Of a stretch of DNA of 64,000 bases, positions 7,055 to 57,900 are shown piece after piece. The position numbers and the translations under genes were made by a program. The notes under the pieces are model-generated. The model was not told where the DNA came from. It did no database searches and saw only the letters and a list, made by a program, of their open reading frames with translations. This stretch comes from Perkinsus olseni (Eukaryota; Perkinsozoa; Perkinsida; Perkinsidae). Position 1 is the first letter of the stretch; the number at the start of each line of letters is the position of its first letter. The stretch spans positions 1 through 64,000 of the forward strand of contig JABANP010000202.1 in the NCBI GenBank assembly GCA_013115135.1, read 5' to 3'.

Positions 7055-8404
7055 TTAATAAGCCTTCGCAGTGGTTACGTGTAACGAGTCAACTATTCGG
7101 TACCGACCGTCATCCGTTTTGAACTTCAACGTTTTCAGCCCCGGTAGGACTCCTCGCCGAAGTCCTTCGAACAGTGGAGAGGTATCCTCAGGAAGGGTGG
7201 TCGCAGTGGTGGTGATGACCTGAGCAGAGTATGAATATTTCGCGCGCCACGAAATTCCTACCCGGAGCTTAGAGTGTGGGGGTATCCGATGGGCTTGATA
7301 GAGCTTGGTGAGGATACCCAGAAAAGATACTCCGAGGTCGGTATGGACGACACCCCCTCCGCCGTAGAATTCAGCAGACTTCGTTAAATTGAGGGACCTG
7401 TGAGTCCACCATATGAAGAGATGATGACGGGAAGAGGATGAGGATCTTACAGGCAGTTCAGGGCCGGGAAGGTTCCTTCCTCAGTCAGCTTGACCGCGAG
7501 AAGCGAACCGATTGCGCCGAAGAAAGGCCCGCTAAGGGAGAGTCTGACGGGGAGAGGCGAAGGCGCAGTCGAGGGGAAGCCCGGCTGTTACCGTTCCAAG
7601 CGAGGGAGCGGCCCGGCTGTTGAGAGACAGTCGAGCAATGTAAATGATATTAGGCAGTCGCTGAGGCTCAGACTCGATAATCGTCGAGCGAAGGGTGACG
7701 GGCCGCACAGTAGGGCAGGCGGGAGGCCTGAGGGTGCCCGAATGATGACGAGAAGACGGAGCGATGCGCCAACCTTTGAGTTCGACTTCCGTCACGGTTG
7801 GCATGAACTCTATCCTCCGCTTTGCCATGGTCAGCTGGCATTGGCCTCTCACAGGATGCCCCCAAGGGACGGCACTCATACCCCTTAGGGTCGGGAATGC
7901 GAACGAGATGGCTTCCCAGATATCCGAGGTCGAACCGTGGCAAGAAGTCCCGTTGTGGGAGATGAAAATCTTCTCGACTCGCGGCCATTCCTCGACGCTT
8001 TCTATCGCCCTCACGATGGTGTCACAGCAGAAGCCTTTGAGATTGAGAATCTTCAATTTGGGCGTGAGGAAGCGTCCGAGGGTGGGGCAGAGGTCGAGCT
8101 TGGATTCACTACCGTACGAGGGCCATATCGTAATACTCGTTAGTGATGGTAGTGTGCAGTAGTTGAAGTTGATGAGTTGGTCTTCTTGTACGGAGAGAGT
8201 CTGGAGGAGCTGGAGATCTTGCCAAGTCAGCAAGAGGTCGTTAGGGGGGTCAACGAGGTGAACAAGGGGCATCTGTTCGATCGGCTCTCCAAACGCTTCG
8301 TACAGCGATGCTGCTTCTGATGATCGTAAAAAGGGGACCACCGCGAAGAGAGGCAGAGCAGCGGAGTGGCGGACGGGGACGGCCTCTTGGGGAAGAGGTG
8401 CCAT
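7055..8404 (-). CDS. Leucine-rich hypothetical protein, three or more exons
   Basis: Exon 1 starts at ATG 8404 and encodes leucine-rich stretches such as TWQDLQLLQTLSV and TPKLKILNLKGF, spaced like irregular leucine-rich repeats. Its 3' end is unresolved, somewhere in 7500-7790. A middle exon (7397-7262) encodes HTDLGVSFLGILTKLYQAHR. The last exon (7219-7055) encodes LRRGVLPGLKTLKFKTDDGR and stops at TAA 7055-7057. The last two exons are joined in phase 0 by a 42-nt family A intron (7220-7261). An LRR or F-box-associated protein is possible; no F-box was found, so no function is assigned. Confidence 0.6.
7220..7261 (-). other. Family A micro-intron (42 nt)
   Basis: Starts GTAGG, carries AATTTCGTGGCGCGCG in sense orientation and ends CTCAG. 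Both flanks are open in the same frame (phase 0). Confidence 0.8.
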
Positions 8405-8555
8405 GGGTGGGAAGGGGAATAAGGACTAAGCGGGAGGGGGACGTGAAATCGATAAGAGAGGCGTCTCCGGCGGCGGGAGTAGTAGCCCGGCCACTTGTCC
8501 AAGTACCGAGTGAAACGTAGCAACGTAACCATGAACTTGCCAATACAACAGGCGA

Positions 8556-8700
8556 ATGGTGGTCATGAAATTTGAGCCCTGGAAACCATCGGCAGTGAAT
8601 TTACAGGTCATATCGCCATCATCATCAGCGAGTCTACGAGAAGCACGAAAACTTCTAAACTTCCCTTTCAGTTCGTATTCTCGTGGAAGCGATCAGACCT
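8556..8700 (-). pseudogene. Relic of the 5598-6782 module family
   Basis: The minus strand encodes ADDDGDMTCKFTADGFQG, close to the module signature DGVRMDCDFTADEGKF of the 5598-6782 protein. The surrounding frame degenerates quickly in both directions. It is probably a truncated copy; a short exon of an unresolved gene is the alternative. Confidence 0.35.
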
Positions 8701-9550
8701 GCTCTCTCCCATCTCCAGTGTGCCGGAAAATCCCCTTCCCCGATTGGTAATCACAAACGAGAGAATACTGCAAAGCAGATGACGGATATCGATGGGTCAC
8801 CCCGAATTTTGGCGCACCAGCTTGGGCCAACCAAGCAGAAAGAATCGTATTTCCACTCTGGTAAGATACGGAATAGCTCGAGCTCTCACTTCGGACCTCC
8901 CGGTACCATCTCCACCCATTACCAGTCGCCCATGTTTTGATGTCCCCAAATCCAGCGAACCTCCAGGAGGCATCCCATGAGCCAACCTCTCAGCCAAACT
9001 CCCCTTCCCGCCCCTCCGAAATCCTCTCCTTCGTTCTGTCAGCTTCCTTCGATCTTCAGGAGGCATCTCAGGAGATGGAGGGACCTGAAAAGACCCTAAA
9101 AGGAAGCTGCAGCGACTAAACGCGAGAGCACAGAGCCGTCCCAATCTTCCGGTGCGATATGATGATCGGAAATTATCGCCGAGCATACGTCCGACGGAAT
9201 TGAGCTCGCTAAAACCGACCAATCGTGCAAGTCTCAACTACGAAGCCTCAGGGTTGAGGTTACCAGCGGCGGCGCGACACTCTCATCACTAGACCATGGC
9301 GGTACCAGAGTGAATCCAGCCGTAACCCTGATTAAGTTGTGCTGGTCGATGTACCCCGACGCTGACTTGGAGACCGAGATAGTTAGGAAGGTCGGGGGAG
9401 CCTCCAGAACACGAGCACCTTCCAGAAGTGTATCGTGTTGGGCGGTCATTAGGACCAGCCATTCTGTCCATGGCTAAGAGGAAGGCTTCCATCTTGTAAC
9501 GTAACCTCCACCTCCCACGATCATCAACCGAAAACAAGCTCTCGCGCCCT
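8701..9550. other. No supportable gene
   Basis: Open frames here look like composition shadows. The minus strand at about 9240-9290 contains a weak tRNA D-arm-like stretch (TGGTCTAGTGATGAGAG) without a matching cloverleaf. Confidence 0.4.
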
Positions 9551-9794
9551 TTAGTTGCTGGATGTCCCTTTATTCCTTTTGCTGTATGCATTCTGGTCGG
9601 TCGAGTGCTCTAGGGGCCGCCAAAGATCGAAAAAGCGACTGCTCTGTCCCAGTCTCTCTGTCAACGACGCGACGACCCATTTTAGGGCGAGCGAGATTGT
9701 CACCCGTGCACGAAAATTGAGAGGGAGGTCTTGAGAAAATATTATTCCGAAAACACGGAAACGATGGTGGAGCCGCTTTGCTAGTAGCAATCAT
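9551..9794 (-). CDS. Small hypothetical protein with a family C intron
   Basis: ATG at 9794 opens exon 1 (9794-9704), encoding a Pro/Phe-rich start with SFPCFRNNIFSRPPSQFSC. A 46-nt intron (9658-9703) with the core TCTCGCTCGCCC is removed in phase 1, and exon 2 (9657-9551) encodes RLGQSSRFFDLWRPLEHS and ends at a TAA. The spliced product is about 65 residues. No homology is recognised, so the gene rests on the splice signals and the shared intron core. Confidence 0.45.
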
Positions 9795-10209
9795 TTACAG
9801 AGTCGCTTTTGGGCTGCAGAATTAATTTAAGACCTGAACTAGCTTCCCGGAGGTTTTCAACTAGGGGTGGGATGGCCATCCGATGGCCATTCAAAGATCT
9901 ATTATGAGGATGGGGAAGTTATTATTGCGGAATGGGGAGAGCCTGGATGGTTAATACAGAAGATCATGCTGGTAACTGTCGATCAAAGCATGAACAACTT
10001 GACAACGTGATCGATAGCGTGATCGATAGCGCGCCCGCACGCGAGCGCAACTCCGGTAGCGAACGCAGCAGTCGCTACTGAGTGAGAAGTTAGTACTGCG
10101 TAGTCGCTACTGAGTGAGAAGTTAGTACTGAGTAGTCGCTACTGAGCTACCATTGATTACTGCAGCGTCAATGGTGACGAGCAGGCCAATCAGATCATCT
10201 GAGTTCACC
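9795..10209. other. Upstream region of FCR unit 1
   Basis: Contains a short tandem duplication (GTCGCTACTGAGTGAGAAGT repeated at about 10071 and 10102) and paired GTGATCGATAGC repeats at about 10010. No gene is seen. Confidence 0.6.
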
Positions 10210-11066
10210 ATGGCTCTCCGGGCTCTATCCCGATTTTTTCGGCTTCCAAACAGATTCAGGACGCACCGAGATCTTCTGTCGCTACGGTAAAGCTTCTCAC
10301 TCATGTTTCCTCGAGAGCGGCGCGGTCCCCGTGTACGCCTTCGTATACGCCGTAGAATTCGCTGACGACGTCGGAGCTGTACCGATCTCAATGACGCGAG
10401 GGTGTACGCTGAACCTCATCCCGAATACAGTCGAGCAAGGGGACGACTTCACAGAGCTCCAGAGACTGAAGCCCGAGTACTACACTCGTGACCAAACACT
10501 TATGGCGAGAGGACCGCCACGAATTTGTGAGCACAGTTTTGAGTATGCCAAGATAGAGAACGACGTGAGAGTGGTGGACCGAGATATTTACACCGGACGA
10601 TACGACAGGATTGAAAAGCAAAAGGCCGATGACATGAAATTATTGTTCCAGGGCACAACGTACCACTACTTTTCCCAAATCCCTCGGATGGAGATTCTCA
10701 TCACGGACGGGCAGACGTTGAGGGTTTTTGATGAGGGCGTGAATAGGGACCCCGCCCCTTTGAAATGGCTATCGAGCGAAAGCCACGGTGGGAACGCTCT
10801 CGCCATCGACAAGAATCGATACGCTGTTTTCATTCACTACTATATGCTGGTTATCAACATTAAGACCAAAGAAACGACAGTTCTGCGCATGTAAGTGCTC
10901 TCCGGGTCGAATCTAACGGAGAGAACAGGCGAACGATATACACACTTTTCAGGAACGGCAATTTGCAGCAACCCAAGCGAAGATTGTGAGCCATTATTTA
11001 CCCTTGTCCTGCGTGTGTACATTGTCGTTGCTCGGCAGGTACTTCGAGAACATGATAGCCGGGTAG
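10210..11066 (+). pseudogene. FCR family A gene, unit 1 (N-terminus out of frame)
   Basis: The body is well preserved: EIFCRYGKASHSCF, MTRGC, EYYTRDQ, then RYAVFIHYYMLVIN. Exon 1 ends at 10890 after VLR; introns at 10891-10952 and 10986-11038 separate two tiny exons ending YFENMIAG, exactly as in unit 3. The upstream ATG (10210, MALRALSRFF) is out of frame with the FCR body, so this copy has lost or altered its start. Function unknown; the family looks extracellular because of its conserved cysteines. Confidence 0.65.
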
Positions 11067-11643
11067 GTGCGGTTGATTGATCTGCTCGCTACCGATGCCA
11101 TCATCACTTCTAGCATGATTCGCGATATTCTCGTTGATTCAACGACATGATAATCGTATCTTGGATTTCGCTGAATACAAACGACTTTTGCCTGTGCTGG
11201 TTCACCTTGGCCGTAGAGCCTGCTGTGTAGAGTACGCGTCGGCAGCCGAACAACTGCGGCACTCTATAAAATTCGACGCTCCCGCTTCACGAATGTAAAG
11301 CCGGGTAACTCTCAGGCTCTCCCCTGTTGAGAGATTCGGGGCTGATGTGAGAGAATGTTGTCCCAGGTGAGATTCGCCATTTCGATCGAACCTGCAGTTT
11401 CCGTGTTATTTTAGCTACGATGGGAGCTTACGGTTCGACACGCGTGTCTGTACTCGTGCCCCATGCAGTGAAGAAAGAGTTACGCGTGTATAAAATTTGA
11501 GAGTACGTGATGTGACCATGCGAATGTTGATGTCGTTGTGGATTCGCTTGTTATCGTAACACTGTCATGTTGCAAACAAGGACAAGAGAGAACTCACGTT
11601 GCCTAGTAATGGATATATCTTTCAGACCTTCTTTTCTGAGAGC
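11067..11643. other. Spacer between unit 1 A and B genes
   Basis: No coding signal recognised. Short hairpin-like repeats such as CTCTCA...TGAGAG occur around 11310-11330. Confidence 0.5.
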
Positions 11644-12442
11644 ATGGACCATCATTCCTTTCTTCCTTTCATCTTTTCCGTCCTTTTGCCCGTGATTCAG
11701 GGGAAGCAGTATAGGGTCACTGGCTCACGGACTTTTTTGCCGTCCGATCTATCCTAAATATGGCGTCAGCGATTTGTGCGCTTTGGCTTTCAAGCAGCAC
11801 CCGCGCTATTATATGTTCACTCTCAATTGGGCTGTTTTTGACAAAATCGAAGACGAGGTTTTGTCAAACTACACCATTATTGAGAGGAAACGAAACAGGA
11901 CTCGCCGATCGACGGTAGCGCCAGATGATCCCTTCACCTTCGAACGTGATATCATAATACCCGAAACATGCCCGATCACTGTGCTAGAGCCGGGAGACAC
12001 AGCGAACTATATCCTTGTTGATGATACTCGTAGGCTTATCGGTTCCCGACCTGCATTGGAAGACATGATGTACCGGAAAGAGATGCTGAATCGGTCAAGG
12101 ATAAGTGAAATCAGCAAGAACAAGACACTGCATTACTATCAACCGGGACGAGAAGATACCGGTTTCATCGTCAAGGACGGCATTGTGACTGAACTGGAGA
12201 GGTTTGGGGGATCGATTGAAGAGGGCCCTCAATTCACGTGGCACGACAATCTCCCAGAAGCCTCGCTACTGAGACTGGACGGCGGCATCAGCATCGTGTA
12301 TTTCATACCGTATTTGACTGTCTTGCATCGATGGAAGTCCCATCGATGCACGACAGTCAAGGCCGTGTTCCACCATGGAACAAGGCCTCGAGCGAACCAC
12401 GACGGGGACTCCGCGGACACGAACGTAAACAACGCAAGATGA
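11644..12442 (+). pseudogene. FCR family B gene, unit 1 (frameshifted, rewritten 3' end)
   Basis: ATG 11644 encodes a hydrophobic signal-like start (SFLPFIFSVLLPVI). A frameshift near the T run at about 11735-11740 separates it from the conserved body (LFCRP, HPRYYMFTLNWAV, FERDIIIPETCPI, YYQPGRED). After FIP, near 12313, the conserved C-terminal codons seen in units 2 and 3 are replaced by a 47-base inverted repeat (12314-12360) and unrelated sequence. Either change would disable or alter the protein. Confidence 0.65.
12314..12360. repeat. Inverted repeat, 21-bp arms, 5-nt centre
   Basis: Arms TTGACTGTC... and ...GACAGTCAA differ at one position. It sits exactly where the B1 reading frame departs from B2 and B3. 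Confidence 0.85.
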
Positions 12443-12751
12443 GTAAAATCCAGGTAACACAAGCCATGATATTGGAGAGGTTAGTATCAGGAAATCGTCA
12501 AATGGTTACCGCTAATAGATCCTAGCAGAGGACAATCTCACAAGCAATGGCGTGGGCGCCTGCGGCATGATAACACTTGGGGAAAGTAGCTAGCGACGCT
12601 AACCTCGCGCCCTCACCTAAGCCCACCGATTTGTCACAAATCATTCGTCCTGCATGTGGTGTCAGTAAGTGTAGCGGCACGCATACCGATCGCATCATGC
12701 GATTCGCATGCAATCCTGTCCATTTTGTGTACGAATGGACGCCGACCGTAT

Positions 12752-12770
12752 GTATCTCAATTTGAGATAC
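12752..12770. repeat. Perfect palindrome 9+1+9
   Basis: GTATCTCAA, one T, then TTGAGATAC. Confidence 0.9.
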
Positions 12771-13473
12771 GGACACGCATTCAAAGCGTGAGGAATTGAA
12801 TCACTAGACGCTCGGGTTTACGCACAAACCATTGCTAAGTGTTATCGTATAACCATTGTTTGGTCTTTGATCTGGTCAATAAGCTTGATGCTGCTCAGCT
12901 AATGTAGCTGACCTCTGATGAGATGTCGCCGATCTCGGCAACTGGCTCGCAGTGAACCATGCCCGTTAGGCGGGTGGTGGATTTAGATACGGATTCAACA
13001 TAATCTGCTGGACTCCCTTTTGCGAGAACGATTGCCTCCATTGTTTGATGATAGTTGGGCGACCGCGAATTTCCGAGGCTCATGTTTTTACGCTACACCA
13101 TTTCCGGACCAAATTGAATAAAGCCCAGACCGGATTAGTAAAACCCTAGAGCAAGTTAATAAGACCCAGAGCGGATTAGTGAAACCCCAGAGCAATTCAA
13201 TAAAGCCCGGATGAAACTTGTGAAACCTCAACGCTATCGCGTTACGAGCTCGAATAAGTTATTTGAAATAACGCTTCCAATGGGTTGCACGCGGAAAGAA
13301 TCATACTTGTAACTATTCTCAGTTGAACCCGTAGGGTTCGACGCGGGGCCTGTGCAACTTCTCTAGGGCCGCGCGTCCATCGAATAGGCAGTTCGGAACA
13401 GCTATGCTACAACCTCCGTTATTAGCTGACGATGCAAAGCAGGCAGCCGTCTGATGCCAAGTCTGACTTGTTG

Positions 13474-13500
13474 CGCGAAGTGCTTAGTAAGCACTTCGCG
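13474..13500. repeat. Perfect palindrome 13+1+13
   Basis: CGCGAAGTGCTTA, one G, then its exact reverse complement. Confidence 0.95.
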
Positions 13501-29218: not shown

Positions 29219-30230
29219 TTACTGCTTGGCCGCTATGATACGACTCATCAAATCTGCGACGCCCGGGAGCTCCGCGTGGTCGTTAGAGTTAACCTTCAGT
29301 TTACCCAGGGTCTGGTGAGAAGACGATCCAAGGCGAATTTCGTGGCGCGCGAGAATTCACCTTGATTTCAGTCATTGCGTTACCCATGACGACCGGAACA
29401 TCAGCGTTCTGCAGCATCTCCTTGTCGTTCATCGCATCGCCAATACAAGCGATCGAGTTGTCTACAACGGAGCGTTTTTACCCGGGTAAAGACGTCAGCA
29501 ACAGCAACCCCTCACATCCAAGACGCTCCTTCAGGACACGAATGCCGTATCCTTTGTTAGCCGCTGCCGGTATTATATCGCAGAGGAATGACAACGACTG
29601 GGCAGCTGCACATCCGTGAGATCTAAAAATGCACCCCGTGGGATTCGAACCTCCGACCTTCCGCCACAGCCTTACTTAGCGAAGTCCTTCAGCCGCCCAA
29701 CAACTTCTCCTTTCATATATTCTGGATCCCGAGTGATGACATGAACCTGACATACACCTGAACTCCGAGATATTAATGAGAATCTCTGCGGCGGCCCTCC
29801 AGGTGGATATCAGAGAGACCCTCGGTGACCCTGGTTGGGAGGGACTGCTGCTGGCCTGCTTCGCCAGAGGTCGCCGGATCGATCCCCGGCGAGAGCATCA
29901 ACCCTTCTTACCATATGAACCGGGATGGCATCATCGCGAACCTTCTCCAGGAGACCATCATAGCCGCCGCAGTCCTCAGGCGACGGATCGTCAAACCTGA
30001 GGAAAAACATCAAAAGGTAAAAAAGGGAAGCAAATCTTCCACTAAAACAACACCATATCACTCAGCAGACGGACATCACCGTTGCTGCTCATCGCTCATG
30101 CGAACTCATATTTCTTTGGCAAATGGCATCAAGACCGCGACGAATGGATACCCAGCGAAAAGGGGTCTACGTGTGGACCATACCTCCGTGAGATATTCGA
30201 TTCGGACAACCGATACTGTCTGTGTGTGAG
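29219..30230 (-). CDS. HAD-superfamily (Cof-like) phosphatase, spliced
   Basis: Well-supported exons are 29740-29676 (HVITRDPEYMKGEVVGRL), 29622-29516 (PAAANKGYGIRVLKERLG), 29461-29361 (SIACIGDAMNDKEMLQNAD... GNAMTEIK) and 29311-29219 (TLGKLKVNSNDHAELPGVAD, stop TAA). GDAMND is HAD motif IV and the NKG lysine is motif III, in the order expected of Cof-type sugar or nucleotide phosphatases. An upstream exon at about 30003-29918 encodes FDDPSPEDCGGYDGLLEKVR. The N-terminal DxDGT nucleophile motif was not found, so the first exon is missed or the gene is truncated. Introns are 49 (family A), 54 and 53 nt (T-arm type). Confidence 0.8.
29312..29360 (-). other. Family A micro-intron (49 nt), reverse orientation
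   Basis: GTGAATTC donor, core CGCGCGCCACGAAATT (the reverse complement of the A core), CACCAG acceptor. Phase 0 inside the HAD gene. Confidence 0.85.
29623..29675 (-). other. T-arm-type micro-intron (53 nt)
   Basis: GTAAGG donor; GGAGGTTCGAATCCCACGG in the middle; GCATTTTTAG acceptor. Joins DFAK to SHGCAA in the HAD gene. Confidence 0.75.
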
Positions 30231-30379
30231 TTTAAATTCCAACGCCGACAGTACGGCTTAGTTAGACTTCCGCCGATACTGTAATAGAATGAGTCAGCCA
30301 CGTAGTAACTACGCCAATTCACGATGGCTAATTACTGCGTCAGAAATCCCTCACTCTCAAGGTCACACAGCCGCGATGC

Positions 30380-33213: not shown

Positions 33214-34760
33214 TTATCGGTGGCCTTTCCCGAAGTAGCTCGAGGGAGGAGGAGGGGGTGGCGGGGGTGGCGGAGGTACACTGAACTGCCCCTGCTGCTG
33301 CTGTTGCTGGATGGCCATGGTGGCGGCAGCCTCGCCCGCTTCCGCAGCCGATCGATTCAACAGAATCGGTGTGCTTCGCTTCGGTGTTTGCTCGGCAGCT
33401 GCTGCGACCTACCGGAGAATCTTCATGCTTCAACCTAAGATACCCGTCTACTTGTCTCGGAGACATCCACGTCCGAAAATCAACAATCTCAGTTTTCGCT
33501 TCACCCGCGGCGCTTGGACTGCCGTCATTCCGCCGCAGCCGAACCCGTTTGCCCGGCGGGCCGCCCTGATGCATAGAATGGGGAAAACTATCATCACTCG
33601 TGCTTCGCTCCGCCCAGTTTTTGTGATGAATACCAACCTGAAGGAGACCGATCAACGTGGATACGTCAAAGGCAGTTCATCAAACATCGCTGGTTGGGAA
33701 AAACAGCAGAATTTCCGTGAAATTTTTTTTTCGTGAAGCCAAAAAAATTTCTGTTAAGCCAAAATTTCTTCAACACTGAAAAGAAAACAACAAAAAATCA
33801 ATAAAAACAATCCAATCAAACGAAGTTAGTCAAAACTATACCCGAACGACTTCGACGCCGGAAAATCTTCGGGAATCTTAGGTCGACCCTAGGCACTTAC
33901 AGAATCTTTCCTCCCTACAGGATGCCGTCCGTACTTGCCACCCCAACCCTGTCCATCCGACGGCGGCGGCCGATGGAGTCTTCCCGGACGATTAACAGGA
34001 GAGTCCCGCGTTTCCTAAAACAACAGCTGGTAATAATTTCGTGGCGCGTGACGATTCACCACCTCCATTTCCTCTCGATAATGATGACTCCCTTCATGCG
34101 CGACTTCCACAGAGGAAAAAGATTCCTCCCCAACCCCCTCACTCGATGAACCCGCTTCATGTCTCTCAGGAGTCCGCCGAGCTTCCCCAACCTACAAAGG
34201 TCATCAACAAATCGATCACCAGGGCGCGCGCTTTTTACACCCCACCTGTGAAGTATCTGTCCCTGTGCATCCAGCCGCGATCGCCGCCCTCCTGAGCTCG
34301 AGAAGCAGCCCGACCGGCAAATTCAGACCGACCCAGGTGGCTTGGGTAATATCCATTATATTAGGCGCGGAATCCAGCAGGTTGTCTCTCAGTATCGTGA
34401 GAATCTGCAGCAATCGTCGTCGTCATTTTTCTGACACCTCTAGCGATGCCCGATCATCACCTTTCGGATTTCAGTCTCTCCGCGGCCACGCTTTCTCAGG
34501 GCTTCTCGGGCGTGAAAAATAACTTCGAAATTCTCATCACTTCCTGGAGCCATCAACAATCAGAAGTTAAAAAAAATATGACAAACAGGAGAGCAGGCCG
34601 CTACTGCAGTAAATCGATCCAGCCGCACTCGTAGAGGACCAGGGTCGACCTCGGATACTCAGCCAACCGTCGAAGATACTCCACGGGCTGCAACTTAGCA
34701 GCTTGCCCATCTCTCTTCTACAAAATCCTCCGGTCATAAGCGAAAAGACTTTCCTCAAGA
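33214..34760 (-). CDS. SAM-like domain protein with disordered Q/P-rich tail
   Basis: Exons, all phase 0: 34543-34461 (VIFHAREALRKRGRGETEIR), 34404-34246 (LRDNLLDSAPNIMDITQATW... ELRRAAIAA, a SAM-like helical bundle), 34191-34063, 34014-33901, 33637-33452 and 33408-33214, ending with six Q then eleven P and SSYFGKGHR. A further exon near 34730-34670 (DGQAAKLQPVEYLRRLAE) probably precedes. Introns are 56, 54, 48 (family A), 263 (reverse family B) and 43 nt (family B). The SAM assignment is by pattern only; a scaffold or RNA-associated role is a guess. Confidence 0.65.
33409..33451 (-). other. Family B micro-intron (43 nt)
   Basis: GTAGACGGGTATCTTAGGTT at the 5' end, CCGGTAG at the 3' end; phase 0 between MSPRQ and VAAAAEQ. 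Confidence 0.8.
33638..33900 (-). other. Intron with a reverse-oriented family B core (263 nt)
   Basis: GTAAGT donor directly followed by GGGTCGACCTAAGATTCCC, the complement of the family B core; CCTTCAG acceptor. AT-rich interior. Confidence 0.65.
34015..34062 (-). other. Family A micro-intron (48 nt), reverse orientation
   Basis: GTGGTG donor, ACGCGCCACGAAATTATTA inside, TTTTAG acceptor; phase 0 between HHYREEME and ETRDSPV. Confidence 0.8.
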
Positions 34761-35099: not shown

Positions 35100-37720
35100 A
35101 GTAGGTGTTAAATCGTTCAGGATCTCTCAATAATAGGGTCCAGATGGATACCCCCCTTGAGGTTGATAGGTCGAAGCTTGCGAAAAATATCTAAAAAGAT
35201 ACCAAAATTTCCAGCAGATTAAAACGCGTTGAGAAAGATTGTACCAGGCAAAAATCGATCACGCGATCGATTTCACTTACCCAGGAGGGCCCTGAAAAGT
35301 CTGCCGAACTGCATAGCCGCTCTGTCTCCCTCCCGCTCCCACAACATAGCGATCCACCTGCCCATCAACAGGGTATCTGAAAATCCAAATTCCCGCACAA
35401 AAAATATTTTCTGTGCGGCTTCCGCAACCCCGCGCGTATCTTTGCTACCCGTATCCTGCAGGGTAAGAAGATCCTGCAAGCTGCCGCTGCTGCTGTTGCC
35501 AGGCCCCGGAAAGCTGACCCGGGGACGGTGGCGGTCGCGGCGCTTCGAACCTTAGGCCTTCAGCCCCTCCCGGAACATAATTGTACTCCAACGGGCGCAT
35601 CATGTATCGACCCATTCTGTTTTGTGCCAGCTCCAACCCAGGATACGCTCCCATCACCCTCGATGGTATCGGCTGGGCCCCGACGAAATTAGTCGCCGTC
35701 GAATTTTCCCGGAAATTTCCGGTGGAAAATCTCCTTCCTTTTCCGCCTTCCCTATCATAAGGCCCGCCAGTAAAATACGACGACGACCCGCCCTTCCGCC
35801 CTGAAAAAACAGAAAAATATTCTGAAATTTTTGCGTTAAACTCGTGGAGCAAACGAACGAGTCCAAAACGTCCAGCGTTCCTCATTAGCTGCGGAGAACG
35901 CAATCTTGATCATTGACAAGCATGACAATCGTCATCAGAAAAAAAGGGCAATTTCCCAGCAGCCCAGTCCAATCAGTCAAGCCGCGATTTCCCGCTAAAA
36001 TCGACAATCCCTAGAAGGGTTTTAGTTTTTTTTTCATGATTTTTCCTTTTTCCATTCGCCCCTCAGATTTTTTCCTACTTGAGTAGGAGTCCCCAACCCT
36101 CCCTACCCCTAGTACCAGAATTCCCCGAACTCTTCCTCCTCGCCGGAGCTTCGTTGGATTGCGGCACTCCAATAGAATCCAAAAACGCCGACAACTTGAA
36201 ACAAGCATCGTTCTGTGAGTCCTAACCGCAGACAAAAAATCATACAAACCTTAGCGGAGCGAAGCCGCTCACTTTTTTGCAACTTTGCCAATCCGAAACA
36301 AATTCCTTCTGTAGTTGGGGTACTGTCACTGAGGACTGCCAAAGCCCAACCTCATCTTCCGGTCGGACCGGCTCGCCAGCGGACTCCTCCGTCTTCACCG
36401 CGGAATCAGCAGCCGGGCTCTCTTCCTCCTAAGAAACAGATGGGTTCCCCCGCAGGCTCTTCCCGAGGTAAACAGGTTGCCAAGACCCCGGGTTCTATCC
36501 CTGCACTCGACGTTTTTCAATAATTATTCACCTGATGACTTCAAGAACCCCCCAAGCAACAGATTCCAACCAAAGCCAATCGGAAAAAAAACCAAAAAAA
36601 AATCCAAACCACCCAGCGAGTACTTTACTCCACCACCACCCTTCATCTCTCAATCCTAATTCACCAAAACAGCGACCCATACCAACAAATTCCCACACCG
36701 GAAAAAATCTACGGAAAATTCCCGATTCACAAAATTCCGCCCTCCACTACTTTGCTGCACACGTGTTTCCATTCCATCACCGTCGCCCCAGCCCGGTGGA
36801 GCTTCTGTCCGAAGTACCGCTGCAGACGAATATGTACCGTTTGAAGTATATTAGCATTTGGGTCGCCGCCTAAAATCAAACCCCTCCCAATTCGATACCA
36901 CACTTTCCTGAATTCCGTAGGGAAAAAATTCCCGATTTTTTTCCCGAATCGCCCAGTTTACCATGCCGGGCGACCAAGTCGTCCACATCGAGCTGAAGCG
37001 TCTCGATGGCGTTCCTCGCCGCTTCGCGCTGACTCGCCTTCTTCATCGGATGCCAACATCCGATGAATTTCATCAGCCGAGCTGAGTCGCCTTCCGGGGC
37101 GTCCAACCGGAAGGAGACTGTGGCTCGGTGCTGAACACCACCCAATCCGTATCTTGCATGCTTCAACCTAAGATACTACCTCCAATCGCTCACCACTGGA
37201 GCCCACCATCCTCGATTCATACTCCCAGTTGAACAGCCCCACGCCCGGCGCGGTGTTGCGATTAGTCAACCGCTGGACCGCTCTAAAAATATCCAAGGTT
37301 CAAGCTGGCATCAAACCAACAACAAAGATACTCTAATAATTTCCTGGCGCGCGGTCACGATTCCACGCCAATTATTACTCTTGCAACACTGCCACCCACG
37401 ACACATGAGGGTCTCCCAGCTGCTTCAAAGTGTACGGTACAACCTCCACAGACTCGATCGGTTTTTGCTGGGTGCCGGGATCGAACCCGGGACCTATCTC
37501 AGCCGGCGCTCCTCCCTCTCCCGTCCGCTTCTCCCCCCGCCGGGCCGCCTCCTGCCTCCTCCTCTCCCACTCCTAACAATCACAAATCGATCATCCGGGC
37601 GAGCGAGAATGTTACTTCCTTAGTTATCGCAGGCTTATCACTCTCTTCCGCAGCAGCCGGCGTCGGAGCTTCCGACTGCCACTCAGCCAGCGCCTAGGAA
37701 ACAACTTCCAACCCGACCTC
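35100..37720 (-). CDS. dsRBD-like protein with Gly/Gln-rich C-terminus, many exons
   Basis: Resolved exons: about 37700-37616 (TPAAAEESDKPAITKE), 37572-37379 (EWERRRQEAARR... PYTLKQLGDPHVSWVAV), 37282-37180 (LFNWEYESRMVGSSGERLE), 37130-36962 (ATVSFRLDAPEGD... KKASQREAARNAIETL), 36869 onward (NANILQTVHIRLQRYFGQK). Later coding patches at 36430-36240, 36180-36110, 35810-35450 (GGPYDREGGKGRR, QQQQRQLAGSSYP) and 35410-35281 (YPVDGQVDRYVVGAGG) fit one gene. The KKASQREAARNAIETL helix resembles the end of a double-stranded RNA-binding domain and parallels the 26767-27660 gene. The last exon is ambiguous. Likely RNA-binding; the exact role is unknown. Confidence 0.6.
37131..37179 (-). other. Family B micro-intron (49 nt)
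   Basis: GTAGTATCTTAGGTTGAAGC, then GCAAGATACGG, acceptor TGTTCAG; phase 0 within the dsRBD-like domain. Confidence 0.85.
37283..37378 (-). other. Family A intron (96 nt) with inverted termini
   Basis: Begins G-TAATAATT and carries the matching AATTATTA-G 37-44 nt later, around CGCGCGCCAGG; the intron then extends to TTTTTAG. Phase 2. Confidence 0.8.
37573..37615 (-). other. Family C micro-intron (43 nt)
   Basis: GTAACATTCTCGCTCGCCCG at the 5' end, GATCGATTT, then TTGTTAG; phase 0 between ITKE and EWERRR. Confidence 0.8.
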
Positions 37721-38620: not shown

Positions 38621-39354
38621 GCGAAGACTGTAGGAAGAAGCGTCACTCGCCACGAAATTACCCCAACCTGGAATAAATCCACCAGCGGAGACGACCATTC
38701 CGCCACCATCCATCAACATCCGCAATCACACAGACTCTTTGCACTGGGTGGTCTGAACTCTAGGACAACCACAAATCCTAGTACTAACCATCTCAAGGCG
38801 GAGAGAGTCCGTAGGATAAGATGGGAGTTGTGGATGCCGAGAGGAGCTTCAAAACGGTATGAATGGCCCACAGCGTTCGTCACATTTGAATTGTAGTAAT
38901 GACTTCCTGATTGTTGTCGTGGTTCCGTGATGAAACCCTTTTACAAACGATGAGGCGTTCGGGTACTATGAGCAGTCAGGTCTACGAGCGTCTCTCCGGC
39001 AGGAGGACGAATATCGGAAAAGTTGGTATGTAATAAAAATAGCTCCCGATATACTTCAAACCAATAGTCGATTAATTCATCATTTCCTCATCGAACTTCT
39101 CGCGTGAATTCAAAATGCATCACGCTTACCGCTGAGCAGAGAACAGCAGCAGTCTGACTTCAGTCTCGATACCCTCAACAACAACAACGCAAAGATACAC
39201 TCGCGAAAAAACGACTAAAAAGACCGCAACAGGGCCGGCTGGAGAATGAAAAATGATGGCGCACGGGGGCCGTCCAAAAACAGCGAAAAAAACTACTCGT
39301 CTTTCTTGAGCAGCTCGTCCCTAACCTGCTCGAAAAAAGCTATTTCCACCCCGA
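38621..39354. other. No gene recognised
   Basis: No convincing frame or repeat seen. Confidence 0.4.
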
Positions 39355-40230
39355 CTAGAAGCTCCCCAATATCACCTCCATGATGATCTTTCCGAGATTA
39401 TTCTGACCCTTCCCCGACCGCAAAGGAGACGCCCCAAAACGTGTCGTTCCAAACATTCCCTTCGACCAGCTCTCGGTCGCCCGTCTCCATCAGCATGCTC
39501 CTCAGGGACTCTGACCCGGCCATGAACTTAGCGCGAACAACTTGACGCATAACGTCGAGGCGGATGTCGTTCCACCCCTCCCTCAAAGGCTTGGCACGCC
39601 GCCCCCACGCCTTCGCCTGATACCATGCCAACATCTCCTACGGGATTCTTGCAGTTTCGAGCGGTCGACATTTCCACGCTAGCCTAGGGCGTCATGATAG
39701 TAGCCGGTCGTCGTTGAGCCTCTCTCTTCCAAACACGTTCCACACTCAAAGCTACTGAGCAGGCCGACCGCGTGCGAGTTTATAGTCCAACAGCGACAGC
39801 ACCTCTTCGGCCACACCATCCGACGTTCGATATTTTGTCGGCCAATACTCGTGAGTTAAATCCCCTTCGTTACAGCACCCTTTCTTTGGTCAGTGTAACG
39901 GAATTTTTTCATACCAAATTTTCCCCTACTCTATTACAGACTTCGCCGTCTTGCACTTCTCCACCATCGAGCGCCGCTTCTCAACATCGAGAATCTTCTG
40001 AGCTTGGAAAGCATGCTCAGCTGTGGGATACAAGATTCCTGCCAAATAATTTCGTGGCGCGCGAGAACTTACCACCACTACTACTACTACCATCATCCAT
40101 CCTGACTGGGTCGTCGCTGAAGTTGGACAGAAAACTGAACGCTCCCTTTGAACGTCCTAATGGCCTCTCCTTTGCTGCTACCTCCCGACGCAGCCGACGA
40201 TGCGACTTTACTAATGGATTTCTCGACCAT
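39355..40230 (-). CDS. NADAR-domain protein (YbiA-like N-glycosidase fold)
   Basis: Exons: 40230-40073, 40038-39938 and 39616-39355. Signature blocks in order: AIRTFKG, FLSNFSDDPVRMDD, YPTAEHAFQAQKILD, GRRAKPLREGWNDIRLDVMR, VVRAKF, LVEGNVWNDTFWGV and NNLGKIIMEV. This is the YbiA/NADAR family; known members cleave N-glycosidic bonds in riboflavin intermediates or remove ADP-ribose from guanine. Introns are 34 nt (family A, phase 1) and 321 nt. Two single-base frame slips, near 40141-40147 and 39395-39400, both beside G runs, interrupt the frame. They are sequencing errors or a young pseudogene. Confidence 0.8.
40039..40072 (-). other. Family A micro-intron (34 nt), reverse orientation
   Basis: GTAAGTTCTCGCGCGCCACG, then AAATTATTTGGCAG. 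Removal joins GG to ILYPTAEHAF of the conserved NADAR core. Confidence 0.9.
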
Positions 40231-50245: not shown

Positions 50246-50264
50246 ACAGTCTGGGCCAGACTGT
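50246..50264. repeat. Perfect palindrome 9+1+9
   Basis: ACAGTCTGG, G, then CCAGACTGT. Confidence 0.9.
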
Positions 50265-51047: not shown

Positions 51048-51170
51048 ACGAGCACGAGATAGCTGCGAGACTCCGGATGATCAGCATCCTCCGCACTCAC
51101 TGCGGATTTTGTACCCTTAGTGGAAACACTACATCTCTTAAGGGCATTTCAGACCATCCCAGATGGTACT

Positions 51171-51195
51171 ATTGACCCAATAGTATTGGGTCAAT
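51171..51195. repeat. Perfect palindrome 12+1+12
   Basis: ATTGACCCAATA, G, then its exact reverse complement. Confidence 0.95.
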
Positions 51196-52051
51196 CCCTC
51201 ATGAGAATGACAGTATTGAGTTAAAGTCAAGAAAGGAAGGTGGAGCTGTTGAAGGGCATCACCACCGCTTGGAGTCCTGATCAGTCCAGCTGATGGGACA
51301 ACGACGACCATGCCGTACCCGATTACCGCAGTTCAACAGGCGTGGATGCTGCCAGCAACATGCTGGAGTCGGATCGAGGATATTTCGATGATCTCTCCGG
51401 CAATAGTTCTCTGTACAGCCCAGGTGAACCGCAAGTCTGCTCGCACTAAATGCAACCAGGGTTGGCGCTGTCTTTCGTCGAGCGTCTTCCCTATATCAAC
51501 GCTATTTCCTAGTGAGCGCGTATTTAGGTCGATCACCTATCGGGCATCTGGTCACTCAGTAATAACGATGATATATGTATGGTGAATACATGCATCCCTC
51601 GATGAATGGTCGCTACCATTCTGAATTCTGCTCTGCCCGGAAAACTGCTGATATCAAACCTAGTCACGCGCCGCATGAAGCCAAGATATAATCCACTTTT
51701 CAATATTCACATTCTTCGTTTGAGTTCTCAATGACAACGGGCTCGGCAGCCCAAGGCTTGGGCCCCACCGGGTTGGGCCCCAAGCGGTTATACTCTTAGT
51801 GGGTCATCATCCAAGGCCGCCGTAAAATATCTCATCCGATTTCATTCATTTGATTCAGATATCCCGCAAGCTACCGGTAGGAGCGAGCGAGGTAACGTCT
51901 GCGGCTCGCAGCTTTCGCCGTTATAATAAGGGCGTTATTTAATCGCCTCGGCCCATCGCTCAAATGGTCATGAATTTTTGAATTGACGACAGCTCCCTAC
52001 TTGCGCGAACTTCACCGTCCGTTTATCAAGTTGATGTTGAACACTCATTCG

Positions 52052-52300
52052 ACACTTGGTCTTTAAGACTTTACAACTATTAATGGAGAACCGCGAAGTT
52101 CACAGCGTAGAGGCAGATAACCGACTGATATCGAATCTCGGGAGAGGGACGTATTGGCAACACGGTGTTGCAGCGTATCCCCCAGGAAAGCGCGCTATAG
52201 CCAGGGGCTATTAGCCACTGTTCGAGACCGCGGCATGCATGATCAAGTGGGCGATCATCGCGAGGCCTCACTGGAGACTCGCATGAAAAGCGCAGAATAA
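52052..52300 (+). repeat. Dispersed repeat, copy 2
   Basis: Direct-orientation partner of 45489-45735. Confidence 0.9.
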
Positions 52301-52640
52301 CCTTTTAGCCGAGTTTTGCATCCACCGCACTAAGCTGGTGGATGCGGCCGATGGCGTGATGGCTATTGCTGATGCAGACTTGTCAGCGACCCATAGGATA
52401 GCGGCTCGCTCATCCGTCGAATTTTTCTGATTGGAGGTAGTTCAGTCCACACTACCACTACCAAACTTCTCTTTCATCGCCGACTTTCCCGAGCCCGATT
52501 CGATGCGAACTTCGCCCCCGGAAACGATCGCCATAGCCAGTTTACTTTTCTCAGTGAGCCATATTCACCGACGAGCCTCGTTGAACGAGGCACTCAGGTG
52601 TTTTCACTAGTCTTATTACTCAGATCAAGATATCTGATAT

Positions 52641-52668
52641 CTGATCTGAGTCTTATGACTCAGATCAG
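52641..52668. repeat. Perfect inverted repeat 12+4+12
   Basis: CTGATCTGAGTC, TTAT, then GACTCAGATCAG. Confidence 0.9.
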
Positions 52669-53267
52669 GCACTCATTTCAAGATCTTTACGGTGAAATGC
52701 AGGGCATCACAGCTCAAGAGAGGAGTGTTGTTCAACAACACTTGTTGCCGCTGGCAAGTTGCCAGCCGGGAAGACAATTACGATGTCGAAAGCACTGAAC
52801 GATACAGCTGCTCTCCTGATCTCGTGAGACGCCCCGTATATTTACCCTAAGCGTCAGGCAATGACGCAACCGGTATGACTTGTGTTACGTAGAGAGATTG
52901 TTTGGCTCATGCCGCAGGAGAGCTCCAGAGAGCAAGTGCTAATCATGCGTAGTCTACGCAGCGCAGACTTTTCGGCCCTGTCCCTGTAATGGGGCTACCC
53001 TCGGGTATCTATCACATGAACAGAACAGGAGAGCAAAATACATTCCTCCTAGTCTACACTTACGCGCCGACGAGGAGGTCAACGACTCGGAGTCATTGGC
53101 CTGGCCAGGTGAGCATATCATCTGTGAGAATGCACGGTCCCTCACCGCAAACCAGCAGACAGCAGATGGGCATATGGCGCGGCGGCACTGGCGCCATGAT
53201 CGGTTTTAACCCAGCTCGGCGTTGTTGCACCGCCAATCCGATAGCTCGATTCAAACTCATCGTGAAC

Positions 53268-53527
53268 ATGAAGACCTTCTTTGTCGCAAAGATCCTATTC
53301 GTCATTGGTGTTGCTTGATCCCTCCCGCGACCCCTACTCCTACGACCGTTAATCCGACCGATGACTCCGTCATCATCGAGCCCGTGAATCCTGCAGAACA
53401 AGACTGCGCCAACTGCTTTTTCTGCAGGAGATTGCCTGCGGATGATATATTTAACCACGGTGAATGTATTAGGAACTTGTTCGTGTGCGGCACTTCTTCT
53501 TGTGATAGCTGTTGCCAGGGTTTCTAG
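53268..53527 (+). pseudogene. Eight-cysteine peptide, copy 4 (16-base deletion)
   Basis: ATG 53268 starts the same signal peptide as copy 2 (KTFFVAKILFVIGVA), but 16 bases present in copy 2 are missing just after it, giving a TGA at 53316-53318. In the shifted frame the rest is intact: PTDDSVIIEPVNP and C-x2-C-x2-C-x13-C-x6-C-x4-C-x2-C-C. The preserved domain suggests a recent loss, or an assembly error. Confidence 0.8.
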
Positions 53528-54213
53528 AACGTCATCGGAGCCAACTTTTGTACCAACTTCTTTCTTCTGTACTGCGGCAGTACTACTGCCGTTGCCGGAT
53601 AATAAGCTCATCTTTTGTATGACCACCCATCGTGCTTCGGCCCAGTAATGATGATGATGACGAACTATGCTTCTATTGATGACCTGTCTCTCTCGGCACC
53701 AACTGTGCTACATTCGCTCAAGCCGAAAAGAACTCGTTAGTCAGCCTGGTTCGCCTAGCCATGTATGCGTCTCGTAGAGAAGCCAAGTGCATTCAATTTT
53801 TCAATACCATCCATTTTTCAGAGGACTTTTCTCTTCCTTGAGTTGTCAATGATAATGGGTGCGGCAGGCCTAGGCAACTTGGGCTGCCTAGGACGGTGCA
53901 TTCCCAGGGAATCATCATCTGGAGTGCTTATGTGGGCTTCCACACGGAGCCTCAGAGGTTCAACCTCTACCGGCAAATATCTCATCCCTACGATGTTCCT
54001 TCTCACAACTCAATACCACTTGGAACGAAGTTATGTGTGTGAAAAAGTCTAACCACAATAATAGCGATACTAGTCCTTTAATTAAGGCACGGTTACTTAA
54101 CCTCCGGATATCATACGAGCTAATCGCTCGGGGCGACCTACAACAACGTGGCAGTCGCAAGTTGCGCAAGTCACACGTGCTGCTCGCGATGGCCTAAGGA
54201 ACGAACGGCCTCT

Positions 54214-54250
54214 GAACGAAGAACAGAGGAGCCTCCTCTGTTCTTCGTTC
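54214..54250. repeat. Perfect palindrome 18+1+18
   Basis: GAACGAAGAACAGAGGAG, C, then its exact reverse complement. Confidence 0.95.
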
Positions 54251-54664
54251 GAATGCTTCAAAGAGACGCACGGGCGACCGATTTTTGGGATGAAGTGTCT
54301 AATAAAGACGCAAAGAATTGAGAATGCCATATGATAGAGAATTTCATGTAGATTCAGAATCTGTAATTACTTCTGTTTTATTATTCTGCAATTGATAACA
54401 AAAATCGATCGCGCGTTTTTCGCGCGTCGCGTCTTCATGAGGGGTCTGCCCTTTTTAAGTCGGCACCCTGTAGAAGGGACACGTTAATAAGGGCCAGTCA
54501 TGAAGATCGCGAAGACTTCGCAGTATCCGCAACGACAGCACCTCAATGAGTGCCATCGACGTCCTGAAGGGGCATATCAGTACTGACTCTCGTGAGACAA
54601 AGAGGATTACACGCGGGAGGAACCATAGGCTATGGTCCATAGCAGTGCCACGGGAGAAAATGCA

Positions 54665-54765
54665 TCATGAAGGGTTCGAACCGGATACCTACTAGCATCG
54701 AAGATCTGACTTTTCATCCCTAGTTGTGCGCCACTAAACTAAACAGTCCCTCTTTGACATCCTAC
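54665..54765 (-). repeat. tRNA-derived repeat candidate (SINE-like)
   Basis: A-box-like TAGTTTAGTGG and B-box GGTTCGAACCC about 45 nt apart on the minus strand, followed by GATGCATTTTCTC. No matching acceptor stem, so not a tRNA gene. Confidence 0.45.
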
Positions 54766-54974
54766 AGAGTATTCATGAATAATCGTGGAGGAAATCCAAG
54801 ATCAGCAAGATCCGCAAGTGACGATAAACGTTCCGAAATAGCACTAAATTTTACACCGATAAAAATCGGCTACATAACGGGTTAACGAAACGGCAGAATT
54901 TATACAGGGGTAAAGAAATCTTACAATCTACAGCGGAGCGAAGCTCTCGCGAGGACGGGACAAAAACAGGGGTG

Positions 54975-57900
54975 TCAAAAAAGCAAGTTGTCGGGGTTCG
55001 GTATCACATCACGGTTCAACTGCATCAGACAACCGAAGAGGGAATCGCTAATGGAGAGAAATAGCCGACTCGAGTCGGGGCTGAAGCCAAGACCCGCTAC
55101 ATTACCGAAGATATCAACGACCTGACGACCATCAGAAATGACCGCGCGCCACGAAATTATTCTCTTACCTGCTCGCATGTGAAGTCAGACGCAGTATCAA
55201 CCACATGAACCAAGTCGGCCGGCTCGGCAAAAGCCAAATACCTGAGGGGGTTTCCAACAGCGACGCTGCGACAGCACATCACCGTCCATCTCCAGAGAAG
55301 TGGCAGGTCCTGACTGCTCCGAGGACCGTCCCTAGCGACCGAAGGGGCTGGTCGGGCTTAAGGTTACGGACATCCCATACACGACAAGTACCATCCTGAA
55401 AAGATGACGATTCGCATCGTCTGTTATCATGATACATAGAAGCCGCCGGAGAAACGCAAATTGACTGGCTCGACCAACTATCAGGTCTCGCTAGGAGCAA
55501 TAGAGCCGAAACAATAATACTAACAGTGAATCCGAGTCTGTGCGTAAGCAGATAAAAACGTGTCTCCTGCTCGAGCCAGACACGAGCTGCAGTGATGATA
55601 GTCTAATAGAGATCATCACCACATTCTACAGAGAAGCGCCGGATGCTACATATCTGCTAGGATATAGTAGCGTGAAAACCCGGATCCTAGAATCCCGATA
55701 CCTCCCAAATCGATCGATGCCAGTTCGTGTAAAATCTTCCCCGCGCAACTCGCGAACGTCCGAGCGCTCGAAAACTTGCCAAGACTCGTTTATACCCTGA
55801 GTCAACCTAAAGATACCCCCTTTACCTGATTTCCGGTAGCCAGGAGATTGCCATTGGGGTGCCAGGTAGAACAGAAGCCATAGTCCAGATGGCCCTTCAA
55901 CACCAACGCCTTCTGCAACTTGGCCGAGTTACGACGGTCCGAAATTATCACAGCTCGATCGTCACCCGAGGCACAGAGGACTCGAGAATCCCGCGGGTTA
56001 ACAGAAACATGATTCACCGACCAGGAGTATCTGAGTGACCGAGATCAGAAACCGCCAGCATCCTTCTCCGAGACGGGCATCAGAGCAAATAGGGGGAACC
56101 TTAGAGAGGCACTGGAGTAGTACTACTCCGTGAATCTCAGTAACACCCCAGATCATTTATGCCTCAGACTAGAGGACACGGTTGAGGTTTATCAAAGTAA
56201 TCGCGTCTCACCACAGGTGAGCTTCACTCGAGAGACGCAAGGATTTAATCGCTACCACCTTCGGACAGTGACTCCGACACGAGAACTACTGTTATAATGT
56301 GTCCTCCAAACCCAATTCGTAGCGAAGAAAACGGGAGACCACCGGGAGTGAGCTGCCCCTTCCTGTTAGTACGTGGCCTCGGAGACGATAGCTCCTCCGT
56401 GAGAGACGTCGATGTCCCGGAGAACTCGGTCATTATTGGCTACTATCATATGGAGAGGCTCACAGCCCATTCGATAGAAGGCCTGCTGCTCGTAGAATTG
56501 GCCATAAACCTGTAAAATGCACCATGCTAGGTTCGACTCTCCGACCGATGACAGGCCCTACACTATCTGGGAGCTTCCTCAGCATGTGCTCCTCAAAGAT
56601 ACTCCCGTCCAGGTCCATCCTAGGGAACCATCTCCTCTCGCCGTGCCCACTGTCCTCTTCCAGCGGCGTCATAATAACATCATCCATCTCGCCGTCAGCC
56701 TCCGCGCCACCATCACTCGAGGCAGCCCCGTCCACCGACATGCTACCAATGATTCGCCTAAGACAAGCTCTCGCTGCCGAGCACCTCTCTCGGGCCTCAC
56801 CGTTGCGAAGGCTTCTCATCCTCAGACACTCTAGGGGAGAAGTAACCGCTGCTCGGCAGTATCAGGGAGTAATTGGTGATGTTATTGCTGGCATCGCTCA
56901 TCCGGGCCTTCAAAACCTACCAACATTTTTCATCATAAGCACGAGTCAACCTCGGATACGCCGCGCCTATCGACTACCTCCTGCGCATCGTGCGTTCTAG
57001 TGACGATGATCGTGGAGTCGAAGCCGCCAGAGACGGCAAAGCCCCTATTAACATCGATGCTGGACAAAGTATGAACAGGCTGCGAGTGCATTTGGGTGGC
57101 CTCTCCCGTGAGAGTGTCGTAGCGGTACAAAGTGGAGTTACAAACAAGATAGACAATACCTGAAAAAGACCAAATCCCATCTCGACCTTCGGCGGGTTCT
57201 CATTGGCAGTACTGTTGGCAGTGGGGACGGTGAGATGACGAAGTTGGAAATGATCGACGGTGGGGTTAAGTCTCCACACGGAAGGCTCCCCGCGGTAGCT
57301 TCGGCAGAATCGATAATAGCACAGGTTCACGCGATCCATCTGATGAAGCAAGTTGACCTGTTCCGTATCTTGCGCGCTTAACCCGTAGATACCTCTGTTA
57401 TGGCCTGCTTCCTCTTCTTCTCCAGAGCGTCATTCCAAGTGACATTGTTATAGTTCGGAGAAGTCCTGCACCCGTCGCTCTCGATACTCGAACCGGTTTA
57501 TCGCAAACCTGCACACAAAAAAAATCAAACAAAAAATTTTCCAAAGTCCCTCGTGTCACCTCTCCCATGGTATTCCCTGCGGGTCCGTCTGCGACCTGTC
57601 ACCCGGCTGCCTCCTCAACGCCCACTGGACCTCCGCTCCGGTGATGTCCCTCTCCGGAGTAGACGGTTGCGGCAGCAACGGCCTCACAGAAGACAGCAAA
57701 CTGCGGGTTGATTGGATCGAACTCTCCTCGGTTATCCTCATCCGCTGTCGAGAAAGCAGCAGAGGCGTCTCCCGTACGGCCACCACGGCTTCTTCCGATT
57801 CCACCGATCCGAACTCGCTGCCGCAGCTCACATCATCGCTCGGGAACGACTCACAGCAGCTAACCTCACTATCACCTTCGTCCCACCTGGGGTCCCACTC

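What the first reader, a model, noticed from the sequence alone, without database searches (positions are those of the whole stretch)
7220..55168. Family A: a micro-intron sequence shared by six unrelated genes, in both orientations
All six occurrences I found of the core AATTTCGTGGCGCGCG lie inside introns: 7220-7261, 29312-29360, 34015-34062, 37283-37378, 40039-40072 and 55122-55168. Each was placed from open frames on both sides, and in the HAD, NADAR and WD40 genes also from family homology across the junction. Relative to the host gene, two copies are forward and four reversed. Lengths are mostly 34-49 nt. Unrelated genes sharing an intron sequence implies copying of the intron itself, as in introner elements. 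Splicing in either orientation at this tiny size is the unusual part.
Basis: partly seen in the sequence, partly recalled or inferred. Interest (0 to 1): 0.92.

Follow-up and report, generated by a model that had tools for sequence, protein, structure and literature searches.

The report
Dispersed 24-letter element inside Perkinsus introns
A mollusc parasite's genome carries over a thousand near-identical copies of one short DNA word, in either direction, many of them apparently inside very short introns of different genes; the introns do not look like copies of one another, only the word is shared, so it may be a DNA landmark rather than a jumping intron.

Summary
The window lies in a 61.5-Mb Perkinsus genome, probably P. 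olseni. The core AATTTCGTGGCGCGCG occurs there 747 times exactly and 1,536 times with at most one mismatch, about equally on both strands, against 0 and 1 for the reversed word. A gene finder trained here, with the core masked, gives 65 of 121 sampled copies an intron probability above 0.5, against 51 of 300 random positions; exon 11 of 121 against 108 of 300. Protein continuity supports splicing at several junctions.

The reading 'copying of the intron itself' is not supported. About 24 nt are shared, with abrupt edges and a few discrete end variants. Flanks are unrelated. No target duplication or inverted repeat sits at a fixed place. Motif introns have ordinary length and splice sites. The copies that could be checked in a second, homologous locus are present there.

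Best reading: an orientation-free DNA recognition element lodged in otherwise ordinary introns (0.45). Main rival: a mobile mini-element (0.3). There are no RNA data here and no known binding protein.

The parts
7241..7256 (-). core copy, exact, forward relative to host gene
7220..7261 (-). 42-nt predicted intron GT..AG around it (P 0.69 in local masked run; not called in long-context run)
29336..29351 (+). core copy, exact, reversed relative to host gene
29312..29360 (-). 49-nt predicted intron in HAD-like hydrolase gene; Hydrolase_3 match spans the junction
34035..34050 (+). core copy, CGTG variant (1 mismatch), reversed
34015..34062 (-). 48-nt predicted intron (P 0.74 in local masked run)
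37338..37353 (+). core copy, 1 mismatch, reversed
37283..37378 (-). 96-nt predicted intron; also holds a degenerate copy (3 mismatches) of another repeated word at 37290
38628..38661 (-). 34-nt predicted intron (P 0.93 in local masked run)
40048..40063 (+). core copy, exact, reversed
40039..40072 (-). 34-nt predicted intron in NADAR gene (long-context run gave 40021-40072)
55143..55158 (-). core copy, exact, forward
55122..55168 (-). 47-nt predicted intron in WD40-like gene (P 0.99 in local masked run; not called in long-context run)

Best explanation
Family A is a dispersed DNA element of about 24 bp: not-A, then AATTTCGTGGCG, then CGCG, CGTG or AGTG, then a purine and a short AT-leaning tail. 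It works as double-stranded DNA, most likely as the recognition site of an unidentified sequence-specific DNA-binding protein or a small family of related ones; the discrete end variants would be different specificities. Because exons tolerate it poorly, in genes it sits in introns, often ordinary short GT-AG introns that are spliced normally with the element in either direction. Shown: copy number, extent, variants, both directions, enrichment in predicted introns and depletion in predicted exons, lack of shared flanks and of fixed duplications or inverted ends. Inferred: that a protein binds it, that it is under constraint, and that the host introns are older than the element.
For: (1) The shared part ends abruptly: in 96 exact copies the information is below 0.1 bit left of -1 and right of +22. 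(2) The variable stretch takes few states: of 80 printed matches of AATTTCGTGGCGNNNGR, 29 CGTGA, 26 CGCGA, 19 CGCGG, 4 AGTGA, 2 others; the two bases after the core are AC 34, GT 27, AA 17, GG 10, AG 7, CT 1 of 96; the base before it is A in 1 of 96. (3) Flanks unrelated, no duplication or inverted repeat at a fixed place. (4) Both directions: 391 and 356 in the genome; 21 forward and 19 reversed in predicted introns. (5) Host introns are ordinary: median 50 nt in 31 motif introns of 30-79 nt against 49.5 in 314 others, similar splice-site scores. (6) Removing the 47-nt predicted intron of a CDK-like kinase gives a gapless match to 5 of 6 relatives, the sixth having no residues there; annotated P. 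olseni and P. chesapeaki AlkB8 proteins are gapless across the place of a motif intron. (7) In second copies of two loci (91-97% identical) the element is present where checked: 3 of 3 by letters, 6 more by nearly unchanged length.
Against: No binding protein or function is known. Copies are concentrated in short predicted introns (23 of 62, against 7.4% of bases) and under-represented in predicted intergenic DNA (17 of 62, against 42.3%), unlike a usual promoter site. A 24-bp word arising in place inside 45-nt introns this often is hard to explain without copying. Copies cluster (27 of 62 neighbour gaps within 5 kb, 6.6 expected) and occur in local tandem arrays (L030, L091), which fits copying. 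Direction is not perfectly even in the masked run: 39 forward and 26 reversed above 0.5. Constraint is only suggested: mismatches are fewer at positions 7-12 (6 of 31, P 0.025), and the number of one-mismatch copies could also fit neutral ageing. One second copy (C275) is 19 bases shorter over a stretch that holds two elements; one of the two was shown present there, the other was not checked.
Confidence: 0.45

Rival explanations
1. A mobile mini-element (introner-like): a unit of about 20-24 bp inserts in either direction; insertions in exons survive by being spliced out, so they now appear as short introns.
For: Exon depletion and short-intron enrichment; the split of copies over short introns and the rest resembles uniform insertion with exonic insertions turned into introns (my estimate); clustering; tandem arrays; two other short word families enriched in short introns; introners are known in Amoebophrya, a relative (PMC7789003, abstract and passages).
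Against: No shared flanks, no fixed target duplication or inverted ends, splice ends at varying distances. Insertion into older introns should lengthen them by about 24 nt, and motif introns are not longer; insertion into exons with recruited splice sites should delete codons, and the CDK-like and AlkB8 junctions are gapless. The copies checked are present in the homologous locus. A weak excess of direct matches of 6 nt or more within 25 nt of the core edges (12 or 13 of 115 against about 7.5) is a hint for it.
Confidence: 0.3
2. Whole introns were copied (classical introners), and only the core has stayed recognisable.
For: Shared core in introns of different genes.
Against: Flanks are random while cores deviate little from a few forms; neutral decay cannot give both.
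Confidence: 0.1
3. A splicing signal or RNA structure needed in some introns.
For: Many copies sit in predicted introns; mild forward excess, 39 to 26.
Against: Both directions common; ordinary splice sites; 43 of 121 sampled copies look intergenic.
Confidence: 0.05

Closest known systems
Introner elements (Gozashti et al. 2022, PMC9860276, passages read)
   Same: Same sequence in introns of many genes; the reported family sizes (5 to more than 2,000) and median lengths (30-654 nt) would cover this case.
   Different: Those are families of similar introns linked to transposable elements, with splice sites from the element, the target duplication or the neighbouring exon; here only about 24 nt inside the intron are shared and no duplication or terminal repeat was found. 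Perkinsus is not named in that main text; its supplement was not available.
Amoebophrya introners (PMC7789003, abstract and passages read)
   Same: Repeated intronic sequences in a parasitic relative.
   Different: Those have inverted repeats of 8-20 nt, direct repeats of 3-5 nt over the borders and non-canonical splice sites; these were modelled as GT-AG introns and show neither repeat. My gene finder allowed only GT-AG, so non-canonical borders were not tested.
Dispersed binding sites of general or architectural DNA-binding factors (CTCF, REST, yeast Reb1/Abf1; from memory)
   Same: Information-rich, direction-free sites in hundreds to thousands of copies.
   Different: Those lie largely in promoters and intergenic DNA and their proteins are known; these favour short predicted introns and no protein is known.

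Membership tests
Introner elements | Same sequence in introns at many different positions | tested here: met
   65 of 121 sampled copies with intron probability over 0.5 against 51 of 300 controls; predicted introns, no RNA
Introner elements | Similarity along the whole intron, including its ends | tested here: not met
   115 copies: no flank similarity beyond the first bases; information gone beyond -1 and +22; splice ends at varying distances
Introner elements | Target-site duplication or terminal inverted repeats | tested here: not met
   weak unlocalised excess of direct matches of 6 nt or more
Introner elements | Recent gain: presence/absence at homologous sites | tested here: inconclusive
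   present where checked in second copies: 3 by letters, 6 by length; one site in C275 unchecked; no other species' DNA available
Introner elements | Spliced out without changing the protein | tested here: met
   gapless CDK-like and AlkB8 junctions; domain matches across HAD, exchanger and MIT junctions, MIT just under its cut-off; no cDNA
Introner elements | Autonomous mobilising element | not tested
   -
MITE | Terminal inverted repeats plus target duplication | tested here: not met
Protein-bound DNA site | Direction-free short word with discrete permitted variants | tested here: met
Protein-bound DNA site | Binding by a protein | not testable with these tools
Protein-bound DNA site | Constraint relative to flanks between homologous loci | tested here: inconclusive
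   three aligned sites only; mismatch positions uneven, P 0.025

The most novel reading that the evidence does not exclude
A self-spreading DNA word of about 24 bp, smaller than any transposable element known to me, that inserts in either direction without target duplication and is tolerated in genes by lying within spliced introns; further word families in the same genome would be its siblings.
Probability: 0.2. Interest if true: 0.9.

Novelty: new variant of a known kind. Interest (0 to 1): 0.62.

Why it matters
Shared intron sequences are usually taken as a sign of copied introns. Here the shared unit is a sharply bounded word smaller than the intron, in both directions, in a lineage next to dinoflagellates, where introners are known. 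If it is a binding site, tiny introns serve as non-coding berths of a DNA-level code inside genes; if it moves, it would be a very small mobile unit tied to introns. Either way Perkinsus makes the origin of short introns testable by comparing close species.

Tried and rejected
Whole-intron copying: disfavoured by unrelated flanks. Transposon signature: direct and inverted repeats of 3-6 nt at all offsets below 50 nt, none beyond permuted pairs; a variable-place search gave only a weak excess of direct matches, and fewer inverted matches than permuted pairs. RNA signal: disfavoured by direction. Co-occurrence within 100 nt: word B near 4 of 116 copies, 3.6 expected; word C near 1 of 116, 3.3 expected. 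Rfam at gathering score: nothing in the window; one tRNA, in L066, among five sources. Viral contigs: 28 stretches with the exact core, taken as chance and not examined. Second copies sought for four more motif-rich regions: no full-length one listed; one search did not list the window itself, so its silence is weak.

Literature (open-licence library only; listings unless said): TTTCGTGGCGCG is in one paper, on a sea anemone, not opened. Perkinsus + introner: only the Amoebophrya paper. Perkinsus + promoter motif: 4 papers, none on such a word by title. Perkinsus + intron: 140 papers, 30 listed, two opened for passages; a third, PMC9399869, passages only, on spliced leaders. Perkinsus olseni + genome assembly: 15, no Perkinsus genome paper by title. 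Perkinsid/short introns/motif: 538 papers, 15 listed, nothing seen on such a word. So I found no earlier description, within these searches.

Limits of the sample: 96 exact copies = 92 of the first 100 listed places (contigs C1-C59; the 8 places on C60-C64 not fetched) plus 4 in the window, out of 747. The 20 longer loci were chosen around exact copies, so intron fractions are not a random census. One search dropped 4 of 125 sites for short context. Searches left out L030, L091 and sites near a locus end (115 used). Of the 65 sites above 0.5, 51 gave closed introns; these are 49 distinct introns, and 4 have a donor predicted inside the core, probably wrong. The clustering simulation used rounded contig lengths. 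The gene finder is self-trained without RNA, allows only GT-AG, and split one long intron in the AlkB8 gene.
Full report
Organism. The adenosine-deaminase ORF of the window is 98% identical to a partial P. olseni protein over 81% of the query and 88% to a P. marinus protein over 97%. G000 has 61,483,535 bases in 968 contigs, the window being C116:1-64000. An annotated P. olseni AlkB8 protein lies on a contig of 138,200 bases, the length of contig C7, on which its gene was found here. I therefore take the genome as P. olseni (inference).

Observation. In the window the core gives 8 hits at up to 3 mismatches, 0.48 expected. In the genome it occurs 391 + 356 times exactly, control 0, and 792 + 744 times at one mismatch or fewer, control 1. 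AATTTCGTGGCGNNNGR occurs 619 + 575 times, control 0. An average 64-kb stretch would hold about 1.6 copies at one mismatch or fewer; the window holds 6. Copies cluster: 27 of 62 neighbour gaps among the first 100 listed exact copies are within 5 kb, 6.6 expected, at most 17 in 2,000 simulations with rounded contig lengths.

Anatomy. In 96 exact copies the information outside the core lies at -1 (A in 1 of 96) and from +16 to +22; elsewhere within 8 bases to the left and up to +29 it is below 0.1 bit. The two bases after the core are strongly tied (mutual information 0.80 bits, z 38) and take five pairs in 95 of 96 copies. Of 80 printed matches with three free bases, 78 fall in four states. Among 115 copies, left flanks show 2 pairs with at least 17 of 30 identical bases against 1.5 in shuffles; right flanks 18 against 4.6, which vanishes when the first five bases are left out (0 against 0.2). 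A gapped comparison of a random half of the pairs found similar flanks mainly among L073, L105 and L107; by eye these share another repeat next to the core. No direct or inverted repeat sits at a fixed place.

Location. A gene model (exon, intron and intergenic states on both strands, GT-AG only) was trained on 248,923 bases, the window plus 20 loci. It recovers credible genes, for example a CDK-like kinase and a malic enzyme. With the core's content masked, 65 of 121 copies have intron probability above 0.5 (controls 51 of 300), 54 of 121 above 0.8 (28 of 300), 11 of 121 exon (108 of 300), 43 of 121 intergenic (129 of 300); 39 are forward and 26 reversed. Unmasked, of 62 matches of the 12-base core at one mismatch or fewer, 23 lie in introns under 80 nt (7.4% of bases, P 4e-11), 17 in longer introns (15.4%), 17 intergenic (42.3%), 5 exonic (34.9%); in introns 21 are forward and 19 reversed. 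In the window alone these are 4, 1, 4 and 1 of 10. The 31 motif introns of 30-79 nt have median 50 nt, the 314 others 49.5; donor and acceptor scores are alike; matches between exon and intron ends suggestive of a duplication are 1 of 31 against about 6 of 314. All the motif introns called (51 entries, 49 introns) have median 52 nt; introns weighted by the room they offer would have median 157, though long calls of the gene finder are the least reliable.

Splicing by homology. Pfam matches span motif junctions in HAD, kinase, Na/H exchanger, AlkB-type oxygenase and MIT proteins; the MIT score (29.0) is just under its curated cut-off (30), and the WD40 gene has only weak propeller matches. Of nine proteins given the malic enzyme and NADAR matches do not reach across their junctions, and one protein had no match. 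The kinase aligns without a gap across its 47-nt intron to 5 of the 6 relatives shown; the P. marinus model has no residues there. The annotated P. olseni and P. chesapeaki AlkB8 proteins and three further relatives are gapless among themselves at their junction, where my own model had extra residues. The deduced intron is longer than my model said and holds the core near its donor, a hairpin-like repeat and a family-B word. Nothing here is RNA evidence.

Age. The locus on C5 has second copies at 93% (C226) and 91-94% (C275). All three copies read in C226 keep the element, one with a change at the first base; a fourth keeps its length in both (401 and 399 of 401 bases). Over the first 2,834 bases C275 is 19 bases shorter; the copy not covered was not checked there. 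A locus on C7 with four copies has a 97% second copy of nearly the same length, 2,404 against 2,401.

Mechanism. Whole-intron copying cannot give near-invariant cores with random flanks. Insertion of the word into older introns should lengthen them; insertion into exons using exonic splice sites should cost codons. Neither is seen in the cases that could be tested. What remains is a word under recognition, kept where exons allow it, or a mobile unit of its own length that leaves no duplication. I favour the first, weakly: short-intron concentration, clustering and tandem copies speak for the second.

Not alone. Two further words behave alike: GCGGAGCGAAGC (39 matches at one mismatch or fewer in the sample, 13 in short introns, 11 forward and 12 reversed in introns; 405 exact copies of TAGCGGAGCGAAGC in the genome, control 1) and TATCTTAGGTTGA (35 matches, 11 in short introns, 16 forward and 4 reversed; 255 exact copies of TATCTTAGGTTGAAGC, control 0). 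The second is direction-biased, by eye often followed by an inverted GATAC end, and forms tandem arrays with 34- or 43-bp spacing, so it may be of another nature.

Noticed in passing
window 36254, 33602, 54933 and others; genome-wide: Second dispersed word GCGGAGCGAAGC, both directions, enriched in short predicted introns (13 of 39 sampled; 405 exact copies of TAGCGGAGCGAAGC in the genome).
   Followed up: partly
window 33427-33442 and 37160-37175; G000 C169:5464-5683, C95:31324-31441, C147:59300-59874: Third word TATCTTAGGTTGAAGC, mostly forward in predicted introns, by eye often followed by an inverted ..GATAC end, with tandem arrays at 34- or 43-bp spacing.
   Followed up: partly
L073 about 4140-4260; similar flanks in L105 and L107: Hairpin-like repeat of roughly 100 bp bounded by GTTCAATAAA and TTTATTGAAC, MITE-like by eye, inside a deduced AlkB8 intron.
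   Followed up: no
window 30221-30277: Dispersed repeat of about 56 bp with some 40 listed matches of 86-98% identity in the genome.
   Followed up: no
L065 3961-4049: About 90-bp sequence matching dozens of genomic places at 97-100%, some of them closely spaced; no Rfam family at gathering score.
   Followed up: no
window 10-21 kb: Three related stretches spaced about 4.1-4.7 kb apart, likely tandem gene copies.
   Followed up: no
window 58648-59937 and 60.5-62 kb: Adenosine-deaminase gene with a diverged partial copy downstream (79-80% repeats).
   Followed up: no
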